Shown piece after piece: positions 9,240 to 25,634 of a stretch of DNA of 64,000 nucleotides. Position 1 is the stretch's first letter. Every line of letters starts with the position of its first letter. The notes beneath the pieces were generated by a model. The model searched no databases. It had not been told where the DNA came from and saw only the letters and a program-made list of their open reading frames with translations. Source of the stretch: Rubrobacter xylanophilus (GTDB taxonomy: Bacteria; Actinomycetota; Rubrobacteria; Rubrobacterales; Rubrobacteraceae); contig NZ_AP019791.1 in the NCBI RefSeq assembly GCF_007164525.1, forward strand, positions 1,847,501 through 1,911,500, given 5' to 3'. The translations under genes were made by a program, and so were the position numbers.

Positions 9240-12200
9240 GTGGGAATCGGCGAGTCCATCGGCAGCTGGCCCCTCTTGCGACAGCTGCGCGAGGGTGATG
9301 TTCTTGGGCTCGGCAGGACCTCCCGGAGCGGAAGGTCCGAAGCCCTCAGGCCCCGCACCGAGCGGGCCCGGAAGGTCGCCCGCTCGGTCTGCCCGTACTG
9401 CGCCGTAGGTTGTGGTCAGCGAGTCTACGTGGAGGGTGGGGAGATCACCCAGATAGAAGGGGATCCCGACAGCCCCATCTCGCGCGGCCGGCTGTGCCCC
9501 AAGGGGGCGGCCTCCCGGCAGCTCGTCCAGAGCCCCACCCGTGAGTACAAGGTCAAGTACCGCAGGCCGTACTCCGACCGCTGGGAGGAGCTGGACCTCG
9601 ACACGGCGATGGACATGATCGCCGACCGGGTAATAAAGACCCGCAACGAGACCTGGGAGGAGGAAGACGAGGAAGGGCGCAGGCTCCGCCGGACGCTGGG
9701 TTTCGCCCACCTGGGCGGGGCCACGCTGGACAACGAGGAGAACTACCTCATAAAGAAGCTCTTCACCGCCCTCGGCGCCATACAGATCGAGAACCAGGCC
9801 CGCATATGACACTCCTCCACGGTCCCCAGTCTGGGGACCTCGTTCGGTAGGGGCGGGGCCACCACCTTCCAGCAGGATCTGGCCAACGCCGACGCCATCC
9901 TGATCATGGGCTCCAACATGGCCGAGAACCACCCGGTGGGCTTCCAGTGGGTGATGGAGGCCCGCCTGCGGGGGGCGAAGGTGATGCACGTGGACCCGCG
10001 CTTCACCCGCACCAGCGCCACCGCCCACCTGCACGTCCCCATCCGCGCCGGCACCGACATCGCCTTCCTGGGCGGGCTGGCGAACTACATCCTCCAGAAC
10101 GAGCGCTACTTCAAGGAGTACCTGGTCAACTACACCAACGCCCCGGTGATCGTCAGCGAGAAGTTCGCCGACACCGAGGATCTGGACGGGCTCTTCTCCG
10201 GCTGGGACCCGGAGAGCGGCTCCTACGACGTCTCCACCTGGCAGTACGAGGGGCTCCAGGTGAGCGCCGCCGCCGGCAAGCGTGAGATGGGCGGCGCCAC
10301 CGGCGAGCAAGCCCACTACGCCCAGGGCGGCGAGCTGGAGGGCGGCGAGCCCCCGGCCATCGACGAGACGCTCCAGCACCCCCGCTGCGTCTTCCAGCTC
10401 CTGAAGAAGCACTTCCGGCGCTACACCCCGGAGATGGTCGAGAAGATCTGCGGCTGCCCCAAGGAACAGTTCCTCGAGGTCGCCGAGACCCTCTGCGAGA
10501 ACTCGGGCCGCGAGAAGACCTCGGCCTTCGTCTACTCCGTCGGCTGGACCCAGCACACCGTGGGCGTCCAGAACATCCGGGCGGCCTCCATCGTCCAGCT
10601 CCTTTTGGGCAACATCGGGCGGCCCGGCGGCGGCATCCTGGCCCTGCGGGGCCACGCCTCCATCCAGGGCTCCACGGACATCCCCACCCTCTACAACATC
10701 CTCCCCGGCTACATCCCCATGCCCCACGCCCATGCCCACACCAGCCTCGACCTCTTCGTCGAGCGCAACAGCTCGAGGGCCGGCTACTGGGGCAACATGC
10801 GCTCCTACATGGTCAGCCTGCTCAAGGCATACTGGGGAGATGCGGCCACCGAGGAGAACGACTTCTGCTTCGACTACCTGCCCCGCCTCACGGGGGACCA
10901 CTCCATCTACCCGGCGATCATGGGGATGGTGGACGGCCGGGTCAAGGGCTTCTTCGTGATGGGCGAGAACCCGGCCGTGGGGGCCGCCAACGGCAAGCTG
11001 CAGCGCCTGGCGCTGGCCAACCTGGAGTGGCTGGTGGTGCGGGACATGACCGAGGTGGAGACCGCCTCCTTCTGGTACGACGCCCCGGAGATAGAGACCG
11101 GCGAGCTCAAGACCGAGGAGATAAAGACCGAGGTCTTCTTCCTCCCCGCCGCCTCGCACGTGGAGAAGGAGGGCTCCTTCACCAACACCCAGCGCCTGCT
11201 GCAGTGGCGGGAGAAGGCGGTGGAGCCCAGGGGCGACTGCCGCTCCGACCTGTGGTTCATGTACCATCTGGGGCGCAGGATCCGGGAGAAGCTCGCCGGC
11301 TCCACCGACCCCAAGGACCGCCCGGTGCTCGACCTCACCTGGGACTACCCCACCGAGGGCGAGATAGAGGAGCCCAGCGCCGAGGCCGTCCTGCGCGAGA
11401 TAAACGGCTGGGACGCCGGGGGAAGGGCCCTCTCCGGCTACACCGAGCTCAAGGACGACGGCTCGACGGCGTGCGGCTGCTGGATCTACTGCGGCGTCTA
11501 CGCCGACGAGACGAACCAGGCCAACCGCCGCAGGCCCGGCTCCGAGCAGAGCTGGGTCGCCCCCGAGTGGGGCTGGGCCTGGCCGATGAACCGGCGCATC
11601 ATCTACAACCGGGCCTCCGCCGACCCCCAGGGGCGGCCCTGGTCCGAGCGCAAGAAGTACGTCTGGTGGGACGAAGAGCAGAAGAGGTGGGTCGGCCACG
11701 ACATCCCGGACTTCCAGGCGGACAAGCCCCCGGACTACGTCCCGCCCGAGGGGGCCCGGGCCGAGAAGGCCATCCGCGGCGACAAGCCGTTCATCATGCA
11801 GGCCGACGGGCGGGGCTGGCTCTACGTGCCCGCCGGGCTCGTGGACGGGCCCTTCCCCACCCACTACGAGGCCCACGAGTCGCCCTTCGAGAACCCCCTC
11901 TACCGGCAGCAGGCCAACCCGGTCCGGCAGCGGTTCCCCCGGCCGGACAACCCGTACAATCCCTCCGGCTCGGAGGTCTTCCCCTGCGTGCTCACCACCT
12001 ACCGGCTCACCGAGCACCACACCGCGGGCGGGATGACCCGCACCGTGCCGCACCTCTCGGAGCTGCAGCCCGAGATGTTCTGCGAGGTCTCCCCGGAGCT
12101 GGCCGAGGAGCGCGGCCTGCAGAACGGCGGGTGGGCCACCATCGTCACCGCCCGCACCGCCATCGAGGCCCGGGTGCTGGTGACCGACCGGCTGGCCCCG

Positions 12201-12449
12201 CTGAAGGTCCAGGGCAGGGTCGTCCACCAGGTGGGGCTGCCCTACCACTGGGGCAGCAAGGGGCTCGTCACCGGCGACTCGGCCAACGACCTGCTGGGGC
12301 TCGTGCTCGACCCCAACGTCCACATCGGCGAGTACAAGACCGCCACCTGCGACATCCGGCCCGGCCGCCGGCCGCGGGGGGCGGCCCTCCTGAGGCTCAT
12401 CGAGGACTACCGCCGGCGGGCTTCGCGAAACGGAGGAGGAGCATCTTGA
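9240..12449 (+). CDS. fdhA: Formate dehydrogenase catalytic subunit, selenocysteine-containing
   Basis: A single gene of 1069 residues interrupted by one in-frame TGA (9807-9809), read as selenocysteine 190. The context ARI-U-HSSTV matches the family's Cys/Sec site before molybdenum-bis-MGD ligation, and the frame after it continues with GTSFGRGGATTFQQDLANAD without any defect. N-terminal 4Fe-4S motif: CPYCAVGC...CPKG (residues about 51-86). Later segments are molybdopterin domains and the C-terminal dinucleotide-binding domain. Oxidises formate to CO2. No twin-arginine signal is visible, so it is probably cytoplasmic unless the partner carries one. GTG start with aaggaggt 8 bases upstream. 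The stop overlaps the TTG of the beta subunit. Confidence 0.93.
9807..9839 (+). promoter_or_regulatory. Selenocysteine UGA codon and SECIS-like hairpin
   Basis: After the TGA and an 11-base gap comes a perfect 7-bp stem, GGTCCCC-AGTCT-GGGGACC (9821-9839), with a GU in the 5-base loop. Bacterial SECIS elements place a small stem-loop with a GU apical loop at this distance to bind SelB. The hairpin lies inside the coding sequence and is translated. Confidence 0.85.
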
Positions 12450-17334: not shown

Positions 17335-18321
17335 CTAGATGTACCACTCCCCGAAGGCGGCCTCTATCTCCTCACGCCCCTCTCCGCGGCGCAGCAGGAT
17401 GGTGAGCAGCAGCCGGGCCTTGAGCCCGTCGAGCACCCCGCCCCAGATGAGCCCGCGAGAGAGGAGGTCCATCTCCGAGCCGGAGAACCCGTACGTGTTC
17501 CGGAGTACGTCACCACTCCCGGTGCGGGAGGTGAGGACGACCGGCATCTCTGCGGCGAGCCGCTGGAGCTCCCCGACCATCCTCGACGGGACGTGCCCGC
17601 CGCCGAAAGCCTCGATGACGAGCCCGGCGTACCCGGCCTCCCTCACCGCCGGGAGCAGCCTCCCGTCGTCCCCGACGGCGAGCTTGAGCAGCGCGACCTG
17701 CTGCCCGGCGTCCAGCGGAGGGGGCTCGACCGTGTGCCGAGCCGGAATCCGCCAGGCGAGCCTCACCACGCCCTCCGAGAGCCAGCCAAGAGGTCCGACC
17801 ACGGGCGACCGGAAGGTCGCGGGGCTCTGGGTGTGCGTCTTCCTGACGAAGCGGGCGGCGTGGATCTCGTCGTTCATCACCACCAGCGCCCCGAGACCCC
17901 TCGCCGCATCGCTGGCGGCGACGTGTACCGCGCCGAGCAGGTTCGCCGGGCCATCGGCCCCGGGGAGGGTGGGGTTGCGCATCGCCCCGGTTATGACCAC
18001 GGGCGCATCCCCCTCAACGAGCAGGTCCATCGCGAAGGCGGTCTCCTCGATCGAGTCGGTCCCCTGTGTTATCACCACGCCCGCCGCTCCGCCGGCGATC
18101 CGACGCCTCGCCTCGCCGGCGACCCCCACGAGATCCTCGATCGTGAGGTCCGAACTCGGCATCTGCCTAAGCGACTCCGCCTCGACCTCGGCCACCTCCG
18201 CGATCTGCGGTACGCTCTCAACCAGCTCCCTCCCCGTCAGCCGCGGTACCACCCCGGGCCCCGAACCCCGCACCGAGGAGATCGTCCCACCCAGCGAGAG
18301 AACCGCTACCTTCGGCCGCAT
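17335..18321 (-). CDS. L-asparaginase / glutaminase family amidohydrolase
   Basis: 328 residues. First catalytic Thr in VLSLGGTISS, second Thr-Asp pair in TQGTDSIEETAF (about residues 86-97), and the Lys of FVRKTHT; all key residues of the family are present. Hydrolyses asparagine or a related amide to release ammonia, probably in the cytoplasm because no signal peptide is seen. Divergent from the deacetylase gene, with a palindromic operator-like site between them, so both may answer to the same nitrogen signal. ATG with gaggagg upstream. Confidence 0.88.
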   Translation of the reverse strand: MRPKVAVLSLGGTISSVRGSGPGVVPRLTGRELVESVPQIAEVAEVEAESLRQMPSSDLTIEDLVGVAGEARRRIAGGAAGVVITQGTDSIEETAFAMDLLVEGDAPVVITGAMRNPTLPGADGPANLLGAVHVAASDAARGLGALVVMNDEIHAARFVRKTHTQSPATFRSPVVGPLGWLSEGVVRLAWRIPARHTVEPPPLDAGQQVALLKLAVGDDGRLLPAVREAGYAGLVIEAFGGGHVPSRMVGELQRLAAEMPVVLTSRTGSGDVLRNTYGFSGSEMDLLSRGLIWGGVLDGLKARLLLTILLRRGEGREEIEAAFGEWYI

Positions 18322-18462: not shown

Positions 18463-19401
18463 GTGCCGGAGAAAGAGATCTTCTGCTCCATCGGGGTGGA
18501 CATAGACGCGGTGGCCGGGTGGCTCGGCTCGTATGGGGGCGAGGACTCGCCGGACGACATCTCGCGCGGGATGTTCGCCGGCGAGATCGGGACGATGCGG
18601 CTGCTCAAGCTGTTCGAGCGGTATGGGATGAGGACCACGTGGTTCATCCCCGGCCACTCGATCGAGACCTTCCCCGAGCAGACGAAGCGGATCGTCGAGG
18701 CGGGGCACGAGATCGGGAGCCACGGCTACTCGCACGAGAACCCGGTGGCGATGACGCCGCAGCAGGAGCGGGAGGTGCTCGAACGGTGCGTGGAGCTCAT
18801 CGAGAAGGTGACCGGCAGGCGGCCGGTCGGCAACGTCGCTCCGTGGTGGGAGGTCTCCAACGCGACCAACGAGCTGCTGCTCGAGTTCGGGTACAAGTAC
18901 GACCACTCGCTGCAGCATAGGGACTTCACCCCCTACTACGCCCGGGTCGGCGACACGTGGACCAAGATCGACTACTCCAGGCCCGCCCGGGAGTGGATGA
19001 AGCCGCTCGAGCGCGGGGAGGAGATAGACCTGGTCAAGATCGGGGGCAACTGGTACCTGGACGACCTGCCGCCGATGATGTTCATCAAGGCCTCCCCCAA
19101 CAGCCACGGCTTCGTCAACCCGCGCGACATCGAGCAGCTCTGGCGGGATCAGTTCGACTGGGTCTACCGGGAGATGGACTACGCGACCTACTGCCTGACG
19201 ATCCACCCGGACGTCAGTGGCAGGCCGCAGGTTCTCCTGATGCTCGAGCGCCTCATCGACTACATAAACGGGCATCCCGGCACGAGGTGGGTGACGATGG
19301 AGGAGATCGCCGACGACTTCGTCAGGCGCTTCCCGCGCAACCAGCCCAACCACGACCCGGGGCTGAACATGTACGGGATCGACACGCCGGCGACGAAGTA
19401 G
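18463..19401 (+). CDS. Polysaccharide deacetylase-family hydrolase, PuuE (allantoinase)-like
   Basis: 312 residues, NodB-type fold. The N-terminal [11 protein letters not shown] replaces the DDG metal motif, and [12 protein letters not shown] is the HxxxH motif. The length and the EERE/GN.APWWE region resemble the PuuE group, some of which are cofactor-independent allantoinases rather than sugar deacetylases. No signal peptide, so cytoplasmic action on a small amide is likely. It heads a plus-strand run of a CxxC protein, metal GTPase, amidohydrolase and hydantoinase, which favours ureide or cyclic amide hydrolysis. GTG start after aaaggaggg. Confidence 0.78.
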
Positions 19402-19420: not shown

Positions 19421-19768
19421 GTGTGCGTGCTGTGCGGGCAGGACTTCGTCGGGCGGCTCCACTGGACCGACAGGCACGTCACGGACCGGGCGCTCGCGGC
19501 CGGTCCGGCTTCCGACCCGGGCGAGCACCAGCGAGACCGGCGCCGGGACAGGGCGCACAGGGTGGCCCTGCTCAACGGGGTGCTCCCCCATTATGGCCTG
19601 AAGGTCGAGGACTGGAGCGGGAGCAAGTACCTGCTGCGTGACCGCAAGGGCAGATCGGAGCTGGTGCAGGACCTGGGCGCTCTGTGGCCCGCGGCGCAGA
19701 GGCTCTCGGGCAGGGTGCCGGACCCGCTCGATGCGGCGCTGCTCGAGAGCCTCGAAGGAGGGAGGTAG
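19421..19768 (+). CDS. Small CxxC protein next to the metal GTPase
   Basis: 115 residues, GTG start with gggaggag upstream. Family not recognised. It opens with MCVLCGQDF, a CxxC pair at residues 2 and 5, then LHWTDRH with two His, a highly charged Arg/Asp stretch (about 33-46), and a helical C-terminus (ALWPAAQRLSGRVPDPLDA). The N-terminal Cys/His set could bind a metal or be a partner surface. Three bases separate its stop from the COG0523 GTPase gene, so a joint role in metal delivery to a hydrolase of this operon is plausible but not shown. Confidence 0.72.
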   Translation: MCVLCGQDFVGRLHWTDRHVTDRALAAGPASDPGEHQRDRRRDRAHRVALLNGVLPHYGLKVEDWSGSKYLLRDRKGRSELVQDLGALWPAAQRLSGRVPDPLDAALLESLEGGR

Positions 19769-19771
19769 CCG

Positions 19772-20776
19772 GTGGCGATCCCGGTTACGGTCGTGACCGG
19801 ATTCCTCGGGAGCGGCAAGACCACGCTGCTCTCGCGCGTGCTGCGGGAGCCGGAGCTCGAGAACACCGCCGTCATCGTCAACGAGTTCGGCGAGGTCGGG
19901 CTCGACCACCACCTGCTCAGGCCCGTCGCCGAGAGGACGCTCCTGCTGGGGAGCGGGTGCGTCTGCTGCAGCGAGCGCGAAGACCTCGCCGAGGCGCTCG
20001 GGGAGCTTCTGGACCTTTACCAGCGGGGTGAGATCCCCGCGCTCGACCGCGTGGTCATAGAGACGACCGGACTCGCCGACCCCGCCCCCATCCTCCACAC
20101 CGTCTTCTCCCACCCCGTGCTCTCCCACCACTTCACGGTCGACCTCGTCATAACCACCGTGGACGCGATAAACGGCACGATGCAGCTCTCAGAGAGCCCC
20201 GAGGCGACGAAGCAGGTCGCCGCCTCCGACGAGGTCGTCATCACCAAGACCGACCTCGCCGGCCCAGGCGAGAAGGAGGAGCTCGAGGCGCGCATCAGGG
20301 CGATAAACCCCCCGGCGCGCATCGTCGAGGCCTCCTTCGGAGAGGTGGACGTGAGGGAGCTCCTCTCCCCCGAGGTGCGGGTGGGGGAACGGGATCTCCC
20401 GCGGTTGCAGGAGCACGACACCGCCTCCACCCACACCGTCTCTGTCACCTTCGACGGGCCGGTGGACTGGACGGCCTTCGGGATCTGGCTCAGCATGCTC
20501 CTGCACGCCCGCGGCGAGAGCGTGCTGCGGGTCAAGGGGCTCCTGGACACTGGGGGACCGGGGCCCGTCGTCCTGAACGGCGTCCAGCACGTCATCCACC
20601 CGCCGCAGCACCTCGACCGCTGGCCGGATGAGGACCGCCGCTCGCGCGTCGTCTTCATCACCCGCGACATCCCGGAGGAGAGCCTCCTCGCCTCGCTCGG
20701 GGGCTTCCGGGGGCTGCTCGGCGCTCGTGTAGTGCCGCTCGGAGAGCGCGTTTCGAGCCGGGGAGGATCGTCGTGA
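19772..20776 (+). CDS. COG0523 (CobW-type) metal-chaperone GTPase
   Basis: 334 residues. GTPase motifs: P-loop GFLGSGKTTLL (about residue 9), ETTGLADPAP (switch/G3 region), TKTDLAG (G4). The metal-binding CxCC motif appears as GCVCCSERED at about 65-72, and the C-terminal CobW_C domain contains GPVDWTAFGIWLSMLL. Members insert or deliver Zn, Co, Ni or Fe to target enzymes. The operon encodes several likely metallohydrolases (deacetylase, M20 amidohydrolase, hydantoinase), the natural client candidates. Stop overlaps the GTG of the amidohydrolase. Confidence 0.88.
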   Translation: MAIPVTVVTGFLGSGKTTLLSRVLREPELENTAVIVNEFGEVGLDHHLLRPVAERTLLLGSGCVCCSEREDLAEALGELLDLYQRGEIPALDRVVIETTGLADPAPILHTVFSHPVLSHHFTVDLVITTVDAINGTMQLSESPEATKQVAASDEVVITKTDLAGPGEKEELEARIRAINPPARIVEASFGEVDVRELLSPEVRVGERDLPRLQEHDTASTHTVSVTFDGPVDWTAFGIWLSMLLHARGESVLRVKGLLDTGGPGPVVLNGVQHVIHPPQHLDRWPDEDRRSRVVFITRDIPEESLLASLGGFRGLLGARVVPLGERVSSRGGSS

Positions 20777-22032
20777 GCGAACGCTGGATCTCCATAGACC
20801 GCGAGAGGAGCGCCCGCAGGATAGAGCGCGACATCGAGACGCTCGCCGGGCCGGATTACACCCGCTCGCGGGAGGCGATACGCCGCTACGCCTACACCCC
20901 CGAGTACCGCAACACCCTCGACTACTTCATCAAGGAATTGGAGGCCGTGGGCTTCAGGTGCACCGAGGACCCCGTCGGGAACCTCGTCGCCCGCAACCGC
21001 CCCGCCGGCGAGCGGGTCTTCGGCATCGGATCTCACTGCGACTCCAACCGCAACGGCGGCAAGTACGACGGGACGATGGGGGTCGCCGCGGCCGTCGAGG
21101 TCTGCCGGCTGAACGAGGAGCTCGGCCTGAACCTCCCCCTGCAGGTGATCTCGTTCCTCGAGGAGGAGGGCTCGGGGTTCGGCCAGATGGTACTGGGCAG
21201 CCGCATCGTCGCCGGGCGGGTGAGCGAGGAGGAGCTCAGAAGCTTCCGCGCGATAGACGACGGGCGCACCTTCTTCGAGCACGCAAAAGAAGCCGGCTAC
21301 GAGCCGGAGCGCTGGCGGGAGTGCGCCCGCATCCTCGACGACCTCGTCGGGTGGATCGAACTGCACATAGAGCAGGCCCGGGTACTCGAGGACACCGGAA
21401 ACCGCCTCGGGATCGTCGACGCGATAGCCGGCTACGTCCACGCGGACATCACCGTCCGCGGGCGCAGCGACCACGCCGGGGCCACCCCGATGGACCTCCG
21501 CAGCGACGCCGGGCTCGTCATGGCCGAGTGTATGCTCGAGCTGGAGCGCCTCGCCAGGGAGGCGCCGGGCGACACGGTCGGGACCGTGGGCGAGGTGGAG
21601 CTGGAGCCGAACCTGATCAACGCGGTCCCCGGTCGGGCCCGCTTCTCCTTGGACATCCGGGGGGTGGACGAGGAGGCCTTCCGCGGCGTGGCGCGCCGCC
21701 TGCGGGACTTCGCCGCGGAATCCGCGCGGCGGCGCGGGGCCACATCCGAGTACTCGGAGCGTCAGAGCCTGTCGGTGACGCCGCTGGATAAGCGGGTGGT
21801 CGGGGCGCTCGAGGAGGCCGCCCGCGCGAGCGGGGAGCCGTACCTGCGCATGCCCTCCGGGGCCGCCCACGACACCATGTGCGTCGCAGACCGCGTGCCG
21901 AGCGCGATGGTCTTCGTCCCCTGCGAGGGCGGGGTGAGCCACTCCCCCGAGGAGAGGGCCGATCCGGCGGACGCCGCGCTCGGGGCCGAGGTCATGCTGA
22001 ACGCCATAAGGAGGCTCGTCGCCGCGGGATAG
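20773..22032 (+). CDS. M20-family amidohydrolase (allantoate / N-carbamoyl-L-amino acid hydrolase)
   Basis: 419 residues. Dinuclear metal ligands visible: GSHCDSNRNGGKYDG (His, Asp), EEEGSGF (Glu-Glu), LHIEQARVLE (His), and near the end SGAAHDTMC (His). Lid domain with GRSDHAGATPMDLRSDA, typical of N-carbamoyl or allantoate amidohydrolases rather than peptidases. Releases ammonia and CO2 from a ureido group. With the hydantoinase it forms a two-step ring-opening and decarbamoylation module. GTG start overlapping the GTPase stop. Confidence 0.87.
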   Translation: MSERWISIDRERSARRIERDIETLAGPDYTRSREAIRRYAYTPEYRNTLDYFIKELEAVGFRCTEDPVGNLVARNRPAGERVFGIGSHCDSNRNGGKYDGTMGVAAAVEVCRLNEELGLNLPLQVISFLEEEGSGFGQMVLGSRIVAGRVSEEELRSFRAIDDGRTFFEHAKEAGYEPERWRECARILDDLVGWIELHIEQARVLEDTGNRLGIVDAIAGYVHADITVRGRSDHAGATPMDLRSDAGLVMAECMLELERLAREAPGDTVGTVGEVELEPNLINAVPGRARFSLDIRGVDEEAFRGVARRLRDFAAESARRRGATSEYSERQSLSVTPLDKRVVGALEEAARASGEPYLRMPSGAAHDTMCVADRVPSAMVFVPCEGGVSHSPEERADPADAALGAEVMLNAIRRLVAAG

Positions 22033-22066: not shown

Positions 22067-23494
22067 ATGTCCGTCCTGATAAAAGGCGGCCGCATCATCA
22101 CCGCAGCCGACGACTACGTGGGGGACATCTTCATCGAGGGCGAGACGGTCTCGCTCATCGGGCGCTCGCTGGACGTGCGGGCGGAGAAGGTCATAGACGC
22201 TAGCGGCAGGTACGTCATCCCCGGCTGCATCGACCCGCACACCCACATGGAGATGCCCTTCGGCGGGACCGTGAGCTGCGACGACTTCACCTCCGGTACG
22301 ATCTCGGCGGCCTTCGGCGGGACGACGACGATCGTGGACTTCTGCCTGCAGCAGGCCGGGCAGACGCTCCCCGAGGCGCTCGAAACCTGGCACGAGAAGA
22401 TAGAGCGCGCAAAGCCGGTCATCGACGTCGGCTTCCACCTCGCCGTCACCGACCTCCAGGAAAAGGGTACGCTCGAGGACCTCGCTAAGGCCCCCGAAGA
22501 GGGCGTCACCAGCTACAAGCTCTTCATGGCGTACAAGGGCGCGATCATGGTGGACGACGAGACCCTCTTTAAGGTGATGCAGGTGGCCTCCGAGACGGGC
22601 GCCCTCGTCATGGTGCACGCCGAACACGGCGACTCCATAGACGTCTTGGTGAAGCAGGCGCTCGCCGAGGGGAAGACCGAGCCGAAGTGGCACGCCGCAA
22701 CCCGCCCCCCGATAACCGAGGGCGAGGCGACCAACCGCGCCGTCCAGCTCGCCCACCTCGCCGGCGCCCCGCTCTACGTGGTGCACGTCTCCTGCAAGGA
22801 GGCCATAGACCCGATAGCCCGCGCCCGCGAGGCCGACTGGCGGGCCTGGGGCGAGACCTGCACCCAGTACCTCTTCATCGACGAGAGCTACCTGGACAGG
22901 CCCGGCTTCGAGGGCGCCAAGTACGTCTACACCCCGCCGCCGCGCCCCAAGGAGAATCAGGAGCACCTCTGGCACGCGCTCTCCACGGGGGTGCTCTCTG
23001 TGATCTCGACCGACCACTGCCCGTTCAGGTTCGACGGCCAGAAGACCCTCGGAAAGGACGACTTCTCCAAGATCCCCAACGGAGGCCCCGGCGTCGAGGA
23101 CCGGCTCATGATGATCCACAACTTCGGCGTGCGGGAAGGCCGCATCTCGCTCAACAGGATGGTCGAGCTGCTCTCGACCGCCCCGGCGCGCTTCTTCGGG
23201 CTCTACCCGCGCAAGGGGACCATAGCCGTGGGCTCCGACGCGGACCTCGTCGTCTTCGACCCGAACAGGAAGAAGACCATCTCCGCCGAGACCCACCACT
23301 CCAACATCGACTACAACCTCTACGAGGGCACCGAGGTCACCGGGGTGCCGGAGACGGTCCTGCTGCGGGGACAGGTCCTGGTCGAGAACGGCGAGCTGGT
23401 CGCGATCCCCGGCGCCGGGCGCTTCGTGAGGCGGGCGCGCTTCGGCGAGGAGCTTCCCGGGGCGGCCGGTGAGCGGCCCATCCAGGTGGGGTGA
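22067..23494 (+). CDS. Dihydropyrimidinase / D-hydantoinase
   Basis: 475 residues, usual length. Metal site: DPHTHMEMPFGG (HxH), the carbamylated Lys in SYKLFMAYKG (about residue 150), HAEHGDS, VHVSCKEA, and Asp in STDHCPF. Opens hydantoin or dihydropyrimidine rings to N-carbamoyl amino acids. Start ATG with ggaaggaggag. A TATCTT sequence in the short gap after the amidohydrolase might add an internal promoter, but this is weak. Likely substrate of the neighbouring decarbamoylating enzymes is its product. Confidence 0.9.
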   Translation: MSVLIKGGRIITAADDYVGDIFIEGETVSLIGRSLDVRAEKVIDASGRYVIPGCIDPHTHMEMPFGGTVSCDDFTSGTISAAFGGTTTIVDFCLQQAGQTLPEALETWHEKIERAKPVIDVGFHLAVTDLQEKGTLEDLAKAPEEGVTSYKLFMAYKGAIMVDDETLFKVMQVASETGALVMVHAEHGDSIDVLVKQALAEGKTEPKWHAATRPPITEGEATNRAVQLAHLAGAPLYVVHVSCKEAIDPIARAREADWRAWGETCTQYLFIDESYLDRPGFEGAKYVYTPPPRPKENQEHLWHALSTGVLSVISTDHCPFRFDGQKTLGKDDFSKIPNGGPGVEDRLMMIHNFGVREGRISLNRMVELLSTAPARFFGLYPRKGTIAVGSDADLVVFDPNRKKTISAETHHSNIDYNLYEGTEVTGVPETVLLRGQVLVENGELVAIPGAGRFVRRARFGEELPGAAGERPIQVG

Positions 23495-24171
23495 TCCGGA
23501 TGACCGACGAGCAGACCCGCCGCGTCTACGAGCGGGCCCGGATGGGAGGGCGGCTGGGGCTGGGGGAGCGCCCGGCCGTCCTGGTCGTGGACTTCAGCTG
23601 CGGCTTCACCGACCCCGAGTGCCCCCTCGGGGCGGACATGACCGCCGAGGTGGAGGCTACCAGGCGCCTGCTCGACGCCGCCCGCCGACGCGGCCTCCCG
23701 GTGATCTTCACCACCATCGGCTTCGAGGAGAACCTCGTCGACGGGGCGCTCTGGGTCAGGAAGGTCCCTTCTCTGGGTGAGTTGCGGCTCGGGAGCCGCT
23801 GGGTCGAGTTGGACCCCCGCCTCGGGCGCCGCGAGGACGAGACCCTCATCGTCAAGAAGGGGGCGTCGGCCTTCTTCGGGACGAACCTCGCCGCCATCCT
23901 GACCTCCCTCGGGGTGGACTCGGTGGTGCTCTGCGGCGCCACGACGAGCGGCTGCGTGCGGGCGACGGCGGTCGACCTCCTGCAGCACGGCTACCCCGCC
24001 CTCGTGCCGCGCGAGTGCGTCGGCGACCGGGCCGCGCCGCCTCACGAGGCCAACCTCTTCGACATCCAGGCCAAGTACGCCGACGTGGTCTCCCTGGAGG
24101 AGGCGCTGGAGCAGCTGGAGAGCACCGGGCGAAGGCCCTCAGCACCGGCGCAGCATCCGGCGGAGGGGTAG
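23491..24171 (+). CDS. Isochorismatase-fold amidase (N-carbamoylsarcosine amidase-like)
   Basis: 226 residues. Catalytic triad of the cysteine-hydrolase family: Asp in VVDFSCGFTDPECPLG, Lys in VKKGASAFFGTNL, and Cys in GATTSGCVRATA. The pattern with an HGY loop resembles carbamoylsarcosine amidase and ureidoacrylate amidase. Starts at a GTG overlapping the hydantoinase stop; an ATG three codons later (23500) is an alternative. Would split the N-carbamoyl product of the hydantoinase, giving a second decarbamoylation route beside the M20 enzyme. Confidence 0.85.
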   Translation: MIRMTDEQTRRVYERARMGGRLGLGERPAVLVVDFSCGFTDPECPLGADMTAEVEATRRLLDAARRRGLPVIFTTIGFEENLVDGALWVRKVPSLGELRLGSRWVELDPRLGRREDETLIVKKGASAFFGTNLAAILTSLGVDSVVLCGATTSGCVRATAVDLLQHGYPALVPRECVGDRAAPPHEANLFDIQAKYADVVSLEEALEQLESTGRRPSAPAQHPAEG

Positions 24172-24234: not shown

Positions 24235-25077
24235 ATGCGCGAGGTACCGGCGGAGACCATAACGCGGGTGGTGCGCGAGCTGTGCATCGAGGCGAACACC
24301 TGTCTGCGGGAGGATCACCTCTCCGCCCTGCGGCGGGCGTTCGAGGAAGAGCGTTCGCCCCTGGGGCGGGAGGTCATCCGCCAGCTCCTCGAGAACGCCC
24401 GGGTGGCCTGCTCCGAACGCGTAGCCTTCTGCCAGGACACGGGATACGCGGTCTTCTTCGTGGAGCTGGGGCAGGAGGTCCGCATAACCGGCGGGACGCT
24501 GCAGCAGGCGGTGGACGAGGGGGTCAGGCAGGGCTACCGGGAGGGCTACCTCAGGAAATCCATCGTGGAGAGCCCGCTGCGCCGCGACAACACCGGGGAC
24601 AACACCCCGGCCATCGTCTACTGCGAGCCCGTCCCCGGAGAGCGGCTGCGCATGACCATGCTCGTCAAGGGCGCCGGCTGCGACAACGCCAGCGCCATAA
24701 AGATGCTCACCCCGGCGGAGGGGGTGGAGGCGATGAAGTGCTTCGTGGTGGAGACCGTCGAGCGCGCGGGACCCAACGCCAGCCCGCCGCTCACCGTGGG
24801 CGTGGGGCTCGGGGGCACCTTCGAGAAGGCCGCGATGCTGGCCAAAAAGGCGCTCGTCAGGACCTCGGGTGAGCCGCATCCCGACCCAGAGGTCGCCGCC
24901 CTGGAGAGGGAGCTGCTCCGGGAGATCAACGCCACCGGCATAGGACCGGCCGGCTACGGGGGGACGGTAACCGCGCTCGCGGTGCACATCGAGACCCACC
25001 CCACCCACATCGCGGCCTTCCCGGTGGCGGTGAACATCGACTGCCACTCCCACCGGGTACGGGAGGCGGTGCTGTGA
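24235..25077 (+). CDS. Class I fumarate hydratase, alpha (N-terminal) subunit
   Basis: 280 residues. The three 4Fe-4S cysteines are visible in AFCQDTGYA, GAGCDNASA and NIDCHSHR. Oxygen-sensitive hydratase interconverting fumarate and malate; the same fold serves L-tartrate dehydratase, so TtdA is an alternative. ATG in the context gggagagATG; a TATTCT hexamer at 24192-24197 may be its -10. Overlaps the beta subunit (GTGA). Follows the nitrogen cluster; fumarate could be an end product of that catabolism, or the gene may be housekeeping. Confidence 0.9.
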   Translation: MREVPAETITRVVRELCIEANTCLREDHLSALRRAFEEERSPLGREVIRQLLENARVACSERVAFCQDTGYAVFFVELGQEVRITGGTLQQAVDEGVRQGYREGYLRKSIVESPLRRDNTGDNTPAIVYCEPVPGERLRMTMLVKGAGCDNASAIKMLTPAEGVEAMKCFVVETVERAGPNASPPLTVGVGLGGTFEKAAMLAKKALVRTSGEPHPDPEVAALERELLREINATGIGPAGYGGTVTALAVHIETHPTHIAAFPVAVNIDCHSHRVREAVL

Positions 25078-25634
25078 GCGGGGAGATCCGGCTGCGGACC
25101 CCGCTCTCGCGCGAGGACGTGGAACCGCTCCGGAGCGGGGAACTGGTCCTGATCAGCGGGGTGCTCTACACCGCCCGGGACGCGGCCCACGCCCGGATGG
25201 CCGCGGCGCTCGACGCGGGGGAGCCGCTCCCCTTCGACCCGGAGGGGCAGGTGATCTATTTCGTCGGGCCTGCCCCGGCGCGCCCCGGACACCCCATAGG
25301 ACCCGCCGGACCCACCACCGCCTCCCGGATGGACCCCTACTCCCCGCTGCTCATCGAGCGGGGGCTGAGGGGCATGATCGGGAAGGGCAAGAGATCGCAG
25401 GCGGTCAAAGAGGCCATGCGCGAGCACGGCTGCGTGTACTTCGGGGCGGTGGAGGGAACGGCGGCGCTGCTGGCCCGGCGCGTGAAGGAAGCCGAGATCG
25501 TGGCCTACGAAGACCTCGGCCCCGAAGCCATCCGCCGGCTCGTCGTGGAGGACTTCCCGGCCGTCGTGGTGAACGACCTGCACGGCGGCGACCTCTACGA
25601 GGAGGGAAGGGCGCGCTGGCGGCGTGCCGGGTAG
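25074..25634 (+). CDS. Class I fumarate hydratase, beta (C-terminal) subunit
   Basis: 186 residues, GTG start coupled to the alpha subunit. Contains the family blocks LISGVLYTARDAAHARM, YFVGPAPARPG, GPAGPTTASRMDPY, GKGKRS and EDLGPEAIRRL(V/L)VEDFP. Supplies the swivelling domain that completes the active site with the alpha subunit. It ends 3 bases before the stop of the opposing AI-2E gene. Confidence 0.9.
   Translation: MSGEIRLRTPLSREDVEPLRSGELVLISGVLYTARDAAHARMAAALDAGEPLPFDPEGQVIYFVGPAPARPGHPIGPAGPTTASRMDPYSPLLIERGLRGMIGKGKRSQAVKEAMREHGCVYFGAVEGTAALLARRVKEAEIVAYEDLGPEAIRRLVVEDFPAVVVNDLHGGDLYEEGRARWRRAG

What the first reader, a model, noticed from the sequence alone, without database searches (positions are those of the whole stretch)
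19421..20776. Uncharacterised CxxC protein paired with a metal GTPase in a ureide operon
A 115-residue protein starting MCVLCG precedes a COG0523 GTPase by 3 bases, within a run of three metallohydrolase candidates. This could be a metal-delivery module dedicated to the hydantoinase or the amidohydrolase, with the small protein as adaptor or metal donor.
Basis: partly seen in the sequence, partly recalled or inferred. Interest (0 to 1): 0.6.

Follow-up and report, generated by a model that had tools for sequence, protein, structure and literature searches.

The report
Small partner protein for metal-delivery GTPase
An undescribed 115-residue protein with two N-terminal cysteines always sits directly before one kind of metal-handling GTPase, next to an enzyme that opens small cyclic imides; this makes that enzyme, not the hydantoinase, the likely receiver of the metal, and the idea can be tested.

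Summary
In detail: a 115-aa ORF (19421-19768) starts MCVLCG and ends 3 nt before a COG0523 GTPase (19772-20776). The small protein belongs to a real, undescribed family with no Pfam, NCBIfam or PDB match. I examined 51 loci in Actinomycetota, Bacillota and alpha-, beta- and gammaproteobacteria. All 51 have Cys2 and Cys5, and all 51 have a CxCC GTPase directly downstream. 50 of 51 also have the 'polysaccharide deacetylase' that lies upstream in the window.

That enzyme is 72% identical to H. pylori HP0310 (HpPgdA, PDB 3QBU). Literature places HP0310 with cyclic imide hydrolases (CIH). M20, hydantoinase and isochorismatase genes are near few loci and are often on the other strand, so they are poor client candidates.

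CIH genes also occur without the pair, but the small protein was never seen without the GTPase. Divergence of the small protein tracks the GTPase (r=0.72), not CIH (0.30).

Best reading: the small protein and the GTPase form a HypA/HypB-like metal-delivery pair dedicated to cyclic imide hydrolase. Pairing and association are shown; metal binding, metal transfer and substrate are inferred.

The parts
19421..19768 (+). Small CxxC protein (115 aa), undescribed family; proposed partner or metal relay of the GTPase
   Evidence: no Pfam/NCBIfam hit for it or for 21 relatives; family
19424..19435 (+). Codons for Cys2-x-x-Cys5, the proposed metal site (Cys2 would become the N-terminal residue after Met removal)
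   Evidence: present in 51/51 relatives; Met removal is inference
19460..19465 (+). Codons for His14-Trp15
   Evidence: HW[TSA] in 50/51; Klebsiella has QW
19772..20776 (+). COG0523 G3E GTPase (334 aa), member of a clade peculiar to this module
   Evidence: tree
19958..19969 (+). Codons of the CxCC motif (C63-V-C65-C66) of the GTPase
   Evidence: sequence; CxCC in 51/51 module GTPases
18463..19401 (+). Cyclic imide hydrolase / HpPgdA-type NodB-fold hydrolase; proposed metal client. Ligand set Asp15, His87, His91 with Asp13 and His248
   Evidence: 72% identical to HP0310, PDB 3QBU, over 290 aa; active-site columns
17335..18321 (-). Asparaginase-type amidohydrolase, divergent; likely cleaves the half-amide made by the imide hydrolase
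   Evidence: asparaginase or amidase present in 36/51 loci; role inferred
20773..22032 (+). M20 hydantoinase/carbamoylase-family amidase; local operon neighbour, not a constant partner
   Evidence: TIGR01879; near 8/51 loci
22067..23494 (+). D-hydantoinase/dihydropyrimidinase; local operon neighbour, not a constant partner
   Evidence: TIGR02033 above cut-off; near 10/51 loci
23491..24171 (+). Isochorismatase-family amidohydrolase; local neighbour
   Evidence: near 7/51 loci
24235..25634 (+). Class I fumarase-type hydro-lyase alpha (24235-25077) and beta (25074-25634); possible dicarboxylate step

Best explanation
The 115-aa protein and the COG0523 GTPase are an obligate pair that loads the catalytic metal (probably Zn2+) into the cyclic imide hydrolase encoded upstream. 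The GTPase takes up metal at its CxCC switch site in a GTP-dependent way. The small protein, through its N-terminal Cys-x-x-Cys (plus His14 in nearly all members), docks on the GTPase and either hands the metal over or receives it, as HypA does for HypB; the GTPase then contacts the hydrolase. The hydrolase opens a small cyclic imide to a half-amide, and an asparaginase or amidase releases ammonia. Shown by computation: the family, its obligate pairing, translational coupling, the constant CIH association and Cys conservation. Inferred: metal binding, metal identity, direction of transfer, physical contacts, substrate.
For: (1) 51/51 small-protein loci have the GTPase directly downstream, same strand in the 50 that could be scored; 44 gaps were measured, mostly 4- or 8-nt overlaps or gaps of a few nt. 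(2) 51/51 small proteins have MCxxC and 51/51 GTPases have CxCC. (3) 50/51 loci hold the CIH-type enzyme, highly conserved (about 70-77% identity to Bacillota copies, 66-75% to most proteobacterial copies) and with a fixed active-site set D-D-H-H-W-W-H in 32/32 pair-linked copies. (4) All 28 actinobacterial and all 9 Bacilli genomes with the small protein have CIH (two cut by contig ends), whereas CIH exists without the pair: the asymmetry expected of an accessory factor. (5) Module GTPases form one supported clade (100/100) apart from other COG0523 proteins of the same genomes; the only intruder is a truncated duplicate beside an intact CIH. (6) Distance correlation: small-GTPase 0.72, small-CIH 0.30; partial 0.71 and -0.26; GTPase-CIH given small 0.60, as in a chain small - GTPase - CIH. 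(7) The CIH relative HpPgdA binds an ion via Asp14, His86, His90 (PMC3084791). (8) HypB hands nickel to the small protein HypA (PMC9164220).
Against: No metal, binding or activity data exist for the pair. CIH occurs without the pair in several genomes, so the pair cannot be universally required. One locus (Paraburkholderia, L056) has the pair with an allantoinase-annotated amidohydrolase and no CIH within the 16-kb locus. His14 is lost in Klebsiella. The AlphaFold model leaves the Cys region disordered (pLDDT about 50) and no known fold matches. The distance correlations are crude and share locus history.
Confidence: 0.57

Rival explanations
1. The module is metal delivery for the hydantoinase or M20 carbamoylase.
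For: In the window and its congener (L082) these genes follow in the same operon, with the M20 gene overlapping the GTPase by 4 nt. All are metalloenzymes.
Against: Hydantoinase is near 10/51 and M20 near 8/51 loci; none of the 25 large non-Rubrobacter loci has M20. In L032, L040 and L041 they lie on the opposite strand.
Confidence: 0.07
2. The small protein is a GTPase regulator (exchange or activating factor, or metal-site capping subunit) rather than a metal carrier; its cysteines form a structural Zn site.
For: Strict pairing and co-divergence with the GTPase. Most of the conserved positions lie outside the Cys region (YGL, DWxG, KG, W, DPL).
Against: CxxC at the extreme N-terminus with at most one further conserved ligand (His14) suits an open or transfer site better than a closed four-ligand structural site. 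Inference only.
Confidence: 0.25
3. The small protein is a subunit or redox partner of the cyclic imide hydrolase itself, and the GTPase is a general zinc chaperone.
For: 50/51 co-location with CIH; order CIH-small-GTPase in most loci.
Against: CIH occurs without the small protein in many genomes; the small protein never occurs without the GTPase; in Klebsiella, Pantoea, Mesorhizobium and Halomonas the pair is separated from CIH; HpPgdA is a homotetramer with no other subunit reported; distance correlation with CIH is low.
Confidence: 0.08
4. The enzyme upstream is a true peptidoglycan deacetylase, as HP0310 was first described, and the module serves cell-wall modification.
For: HP0310 mutants have altered peptidoglycan acetylation and lysozyme sensitivity (cited in PMC3084791); esterase and acetylxylan activity was reported (PMC3688963).
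Against: No activity on polysaccharides in vitro, closed small-molecule pocket, no signal peptide (PMC3084791); relatives HxnM and the P. putida imidase act on cyclic imides (PMC9304392); neighbours here are transporters, SDRs and amidases of a catabolic kind.
Confidence: 0.05

Closest known systems
HypA/HypB nickel delivery to [NiFe]-hydrogenase
   Same: A G3E GTPase works with a small metal-binding partner to mature a client enzyme; HypB passes metal to HypA (PMC9164220).
   Different: GTPase here is COG0523, not HypB. The small protein has no detectable sequence relation to any Pfam/NCBIfam model, HypA included. Metal and client differ.
Nha3 (P44K/P47K), COG0523 activator of Fe-type nitrile hydratase
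   Same: COG0523 GTPase with CxCC serving one dedicated client enzyme (PMC9164220, PMC2770081).
   Different: Client here is a NodB-fold hydrolase, and a separate small Cys protein is always present.
E. coli YjiA (COG0523, PDB 1NIJ/4IXM)
   Same: Only solved relative of the window GTPase found by sequence (E 1.7e-54).
   Different: The module GTPases form their own clade against other COG0523 proteins sampled; YjiA itself was not in that tree. The window GTPase misses the NCBIfam cut-off for the YjiA model (213 vs 361 bits).
H. pylori HP0310 (HpPgdA) with HP0311 and HP0312
   Same: The window enzyme is 72% identical to HP0310. HP0312 is COG0523 (PMC2770081) and HP0311 is an uncharacterised gene between them by locus tag (PMC3866246).
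   Different: Whether HP0311 belongs to the small-protein family could not be tested here. HP0310 is labelled a peptidoglycan deacetylase.
Cyclic imide hydrolase (imidase) of P. putida YZ-26 and HxnM of Aspergillus nidulans
   Same: Same NodB-fold lineage as HpPgdA by published comparison (PMC9304392); the dehydrogenase - imide hydrolase - amidase order of reactions matches neighbouring genes in many loci.
   Different: No accessory GTPase or small protein is described for them in the papers read.

Membership tests
COG0523 G3E GTPases (gene 19772-20776) | CobW/HypB/UreG nucleotide-binding domain with Walker A and CxCC motif | tested here: met
   PF02492 9e-48; GFLGSGKT and GCVCC in sequence; CxCC in 51/51 relatives
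COG0523 G3E GTPases (gene 19772-20776) | CobW C-terminal domain | tested here: met
   PF07683 1.8e-21
COG0523 G3E GTPases (gene 19772-20776) | High-affinity metal binding and GTP hydrolysis | not testable with these tools
   needs biochemistry
NCBIfam equivalogs CobW, ZigA, YjiA (PRK11537) | Score above the curated equivalog cut-off | tested here: not met
   145 vs 332, 112 vs 600, 213 vs 361 bits
Cyclic imide hydrolase / HpPgdA lineage of the polysaccharide deacetylase family (gene 18463-19401) | Close full-length relation to HP0310 (3QBU) | tested here: met
   E 5e-151, 72% identity over 290 aa
Cyclic imide hydrolase / HpPgdA lineage of the polysaccharide deacetylase family (gene 18463-19401) | Metal site Asp14, His86, His90 and catalytic Asp12, His247 (HP0310 numbering) | tested here: met
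   Asp15, His87, His91, Asp13, His248
Cyclic imide hydrolase / HpPgdA lineage of the polysaccharide deacetylase family (gene 18463-19401) | Hydrolyses cyclic imides | not testable with these tools
   inferred from published relatives (PMC9304392)
PuuE allantoinase | NCBIfam TIGR03212 equivalog cut-off | tested here: not met
   83 vs 425 bits
HypA (for the small protein) | Detectable match to a HypA or any other curated family | tested here: not met
   no Pfam or NCBIfam match for 22 members beyond isolated chance hits
HypA (for the small protein) | N-terminal metal site and transfer of metal with a G3E GTPase | not testable with these tools
   functional analogy only
Small-protein family defined here | N-terminal MCxxC and adjacent CxCC GTPase | tested here: met
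   51/51 loci

The most novel reading that the evidence does not exclude
The small protein is a new type of metal relay: after Met removal its N-terminal Cys, the second Cys and usually His14 form a three-ligand transfer site that exchanges metal with its own clade of COG0523 GTPases. The module would be a dedicated COG0523-client system with cyclic imide hydrolase as client. The same system would operate in H. pylori as HP0310-HP0311-HP0312, making HpPgdA a metal-loaded imide hydrolase rather than a wall deacetylase.
Probability: 0.33. Interest if true: 0.75.

Novelty: new variant of a known kind. Interest (0 to 1): 0.57.

Why it matters
Most COG0523 GTPases have no known client (PMC9164220). 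Here a three-gene unit, constant across phyla, names one client and one obligate partner, small enough to test in vitro with three purified proteins. It adds an undescribed protein family. It also bears on the unsettled substrate of H. pylori HP0310, a gene studied for immune evasion: its close relative sits in a small-molecule catabolic setting with a metal-handling pair.

Tried and rejected
Hydantoinase/M20 as constant clients: rejected on neighbour counts. Small protein as part of a known family: no Pfam, NCBIfam or PDB sequence match. Fold match for the AlphaFold model: none (best E 0.12). A divergent small protein beside 'pairless' CIH genes: none by sensitive HMM search; two such loci hold remnants of the GTPase (L175, L177) and one ends at a contig end (L173). 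A different active site forcing need for the pair: pair and no-pair CIHs are mixed in the tree; only some no-pair copies have lost the catalytic Asp, too few events to conclude. The small protein of a related GTPase locus in Comamonadaceae (L180) shows no sequence relation to this family. Viral contigs: no relatives. Could not reach Helicobacter or proteobacterial chromosomes with the genome search, since no genome handle was available; proteobacterial data are from plasmids.

Full report
1. Observation. The window lies in a complete 3.02-Mb genome (G000); its relatives by sequence are Rubrobacteraceae. On the + strand an operon-like run reads: 18463-19401 NodB-fold hydrolase, 19421-19768 small protein, 19772-20776 COG0523 GTPase, 20773-22032 M20 amidase, 22067-23494 D-hydantoinase, 23491-24171 isochorismatase-family amidohydrolase, 24235-25634 class I fumarase-type subunits. 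An asparaginase diverges at 17335-18321. The small ORF begins GTG TGC GTG CTG TGC (MCVLC) and the GTPase starts 3 nt after its stop.

2. The small protein is real and undescribed. In a sample of 396 actinobacterial genomes, 28 carry it, nearly all Rubrobacteraceae; in 399 Bacilli, 9. It is on 59 plasmid records, mainly of rhizobia, plus Thioclava, Paraburkholderia, Halomonas and others; a Klebsiella query found Klebsiella and Pantoea copies. Across 22 diverse members the invariant columns are M1 C2 C5 H14 W15 G77 W89 D101 L103. Klebsiella, not in that alignment, has Gln at position 14. No Pfam or NCBIfam model matches. AlphaFold from 21 sequences gives a long helix (33-58), three strands (60-82) and two helices with mean pLDDT 78.5, while the N-terminal Cys region is disordered. 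No PDB fold matches.

3. Obligate pairing. In 51 loci with enough flank the GTPase is directly downstream in 51; same-strand orientation was scored in 50 by script, and the 51st (L048) could not be scored because its GTPase reads in two frames. Among 44 measurable gaps most are 4- or 8-nt overlaps or a few nt, the signature of translational coupling. With one strong COG0523 gene in the own genome, chance adjacency is of the order of one in a thousand per locus (my estimate), and it holds in many distant lineages. The module GTPases cluster in one clade (support 100/100) against other COG0523 proteins of the same genomes; the one intruder is a truncated duplicate next to an intact imide hydrolase.

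4. The constant third gene. The hydrolase upstream is in 50/51 loci. It is 72% identical over 290 residues to H. pylori HP0310/HpPgdA, PDB 3QBU. The HP0310 structure paper reports no activity on polysaccharides or allantoin, a closed pocket fit for a small molecule, an ion held by Asp14, His86 and His90, and no signal peptide (PMC3084791). A later paper groups HP0310 with cyclic imidases: HxnM of A. nidulans, which opens 3-hydroxypiperidine-2,6-dione, is 64% identical to the P. putida YZ-26 imidase and close to 3QBU in structure (PMC9304392). In that fungal route a dehydrogenase acts before and an amidase after HxnM; SDR, asparaginase or amidase genes recur around the bacterial module. A contrary report gives HP0310 acetylesterase and acetylxylan esterase activity (PMC3688963). 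I file the window enzyme with this lineage on sequence and active-site grounds; imide hydrolysis is inferred.

5. Which enzyme is the client? Hydantoinase is near 10/51, M20 near 8/51, isochorismatase near 7/51 loci; outside Rubrobacteraceae no large locus has M20 or isochorismatase. In L032, L040 and L041 they are on the opposite strand. The imide hydrolase is the constant partner. All actinobacterial and Bacilli genomes with the small protein have it (G016 and G021 have copies cut by contig ends), but it also occurs alone: Rouxiella, Rhodococcus, Variovorax, Natrinema and several Actinomycetota. Pair and no-pair hydrolases are intermixed in the tree, needing about 6-11 changes. That is the pattern of an accessory factor that is gained and lost, not of a subunit. 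All 32 pair-linked hydrolases keep D-D-H-H-W-W-H at the active site; four no-pair copies have His or Gly for the first Asp and two distant ones differ at Trp128.

6. Order of contacts. Pairwise divergence over 30 loci correlates 0.72 for small-GTPase, 0.30 for small-hydrolase and 0.61 for GTPase-hydrolase; partial correlations are 0.71, -0.26 and 0.60. This fits a chain small - GTPase - hydrolase. The method is crude (shared history, saturation), so it is a hint only.

7. Mechanism. COG0523 GTPases are metallochaperones whose CxCC sits in switch I (PMC2770081; PMC9164220). HypB passes nickel to the small protein HypA. By analogy the small protein here would exchange metal with the GTPase through Cys2, Cys5 and usually His14. 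Because Cys is a small second residue, Met1 should be removed (general knowledge), leaving an N-terminal cysteine that could also bind through its amine. Zinc is the likeliest metal since it was assumed for 3QBU and is prominent among COG0523 metals, but cobalt, iron or nickel are not excluded. A regulatory role of the small protein on the GTPase is the main rival (0.25).

8. Novelty. A dedicated COG0523-client pair has precedents (CobW for B12 cobalt, Nha3 for nitrile hydratase). New here are the obligate small partner family, the client assignment, and the phylogenetic breadth. The HP0310 paper's supplement already compared the HP0310 and HP0312 neighbourhoods, so the co-location with a GTPase was visible before; the main texts searched do not name the small protein or this client. 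The most specific COG0523 review (Edmonds 2021) is not in the held library, so prior mention cannot be excluded.

9. Limits. HP0311 membership is a lead from gene order in the literature, not a test.

Noticed in passing
window 9240-12449 (+): Formate dehydrogenase alpha subunit is open only if an in-frame TGA at 9807-9809 is read through (...NQARI-U-HSS...), a likely selenocysteine. The genome has a tRNA-Sec above the Rfam cut-off at G000:C1:1198663-1198753.
   Followed up: partly
L180:1624-7062 (Comamonadaceae plasmid CP099606): A different small Cys protein (CGCG motif, 123 aa) sits between hydantoinase/oxoprolinase A/B genes and a COG0523 GTPase; it shows no sequence relation to the small protein here and may be another client-specific partner.
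   Followed up: partly
L178:5498-6966 (Aminobacter niigataensis plasmid): A COG0523 GTPase about 46% identical to the window's follows a RidA gene near a cytosine deaminase, without the small protein.
   Followed up: no
L177 / L119 and L175: Duplicate imide hydrolase genes lie next to a truncated remnant of the GTPase with the small protein gone: decay of the accessory pair while the enzyme stays intact.
   Followed up: partly
L168, L169, L170, L068: Imide hydrolases without the pair have the catalytic Asp (window Asp13) replaced by His (three Actinomycetota) or Gly (Rouxiella).
   Followed up: partly
L048:10335-11377 (Paenibacillus sp. P25): The module GTPase reads in two frames and the imide hydrolase stretch holds an in-frame stop in the extended match: decay or sequencing error.
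   Followed up: no
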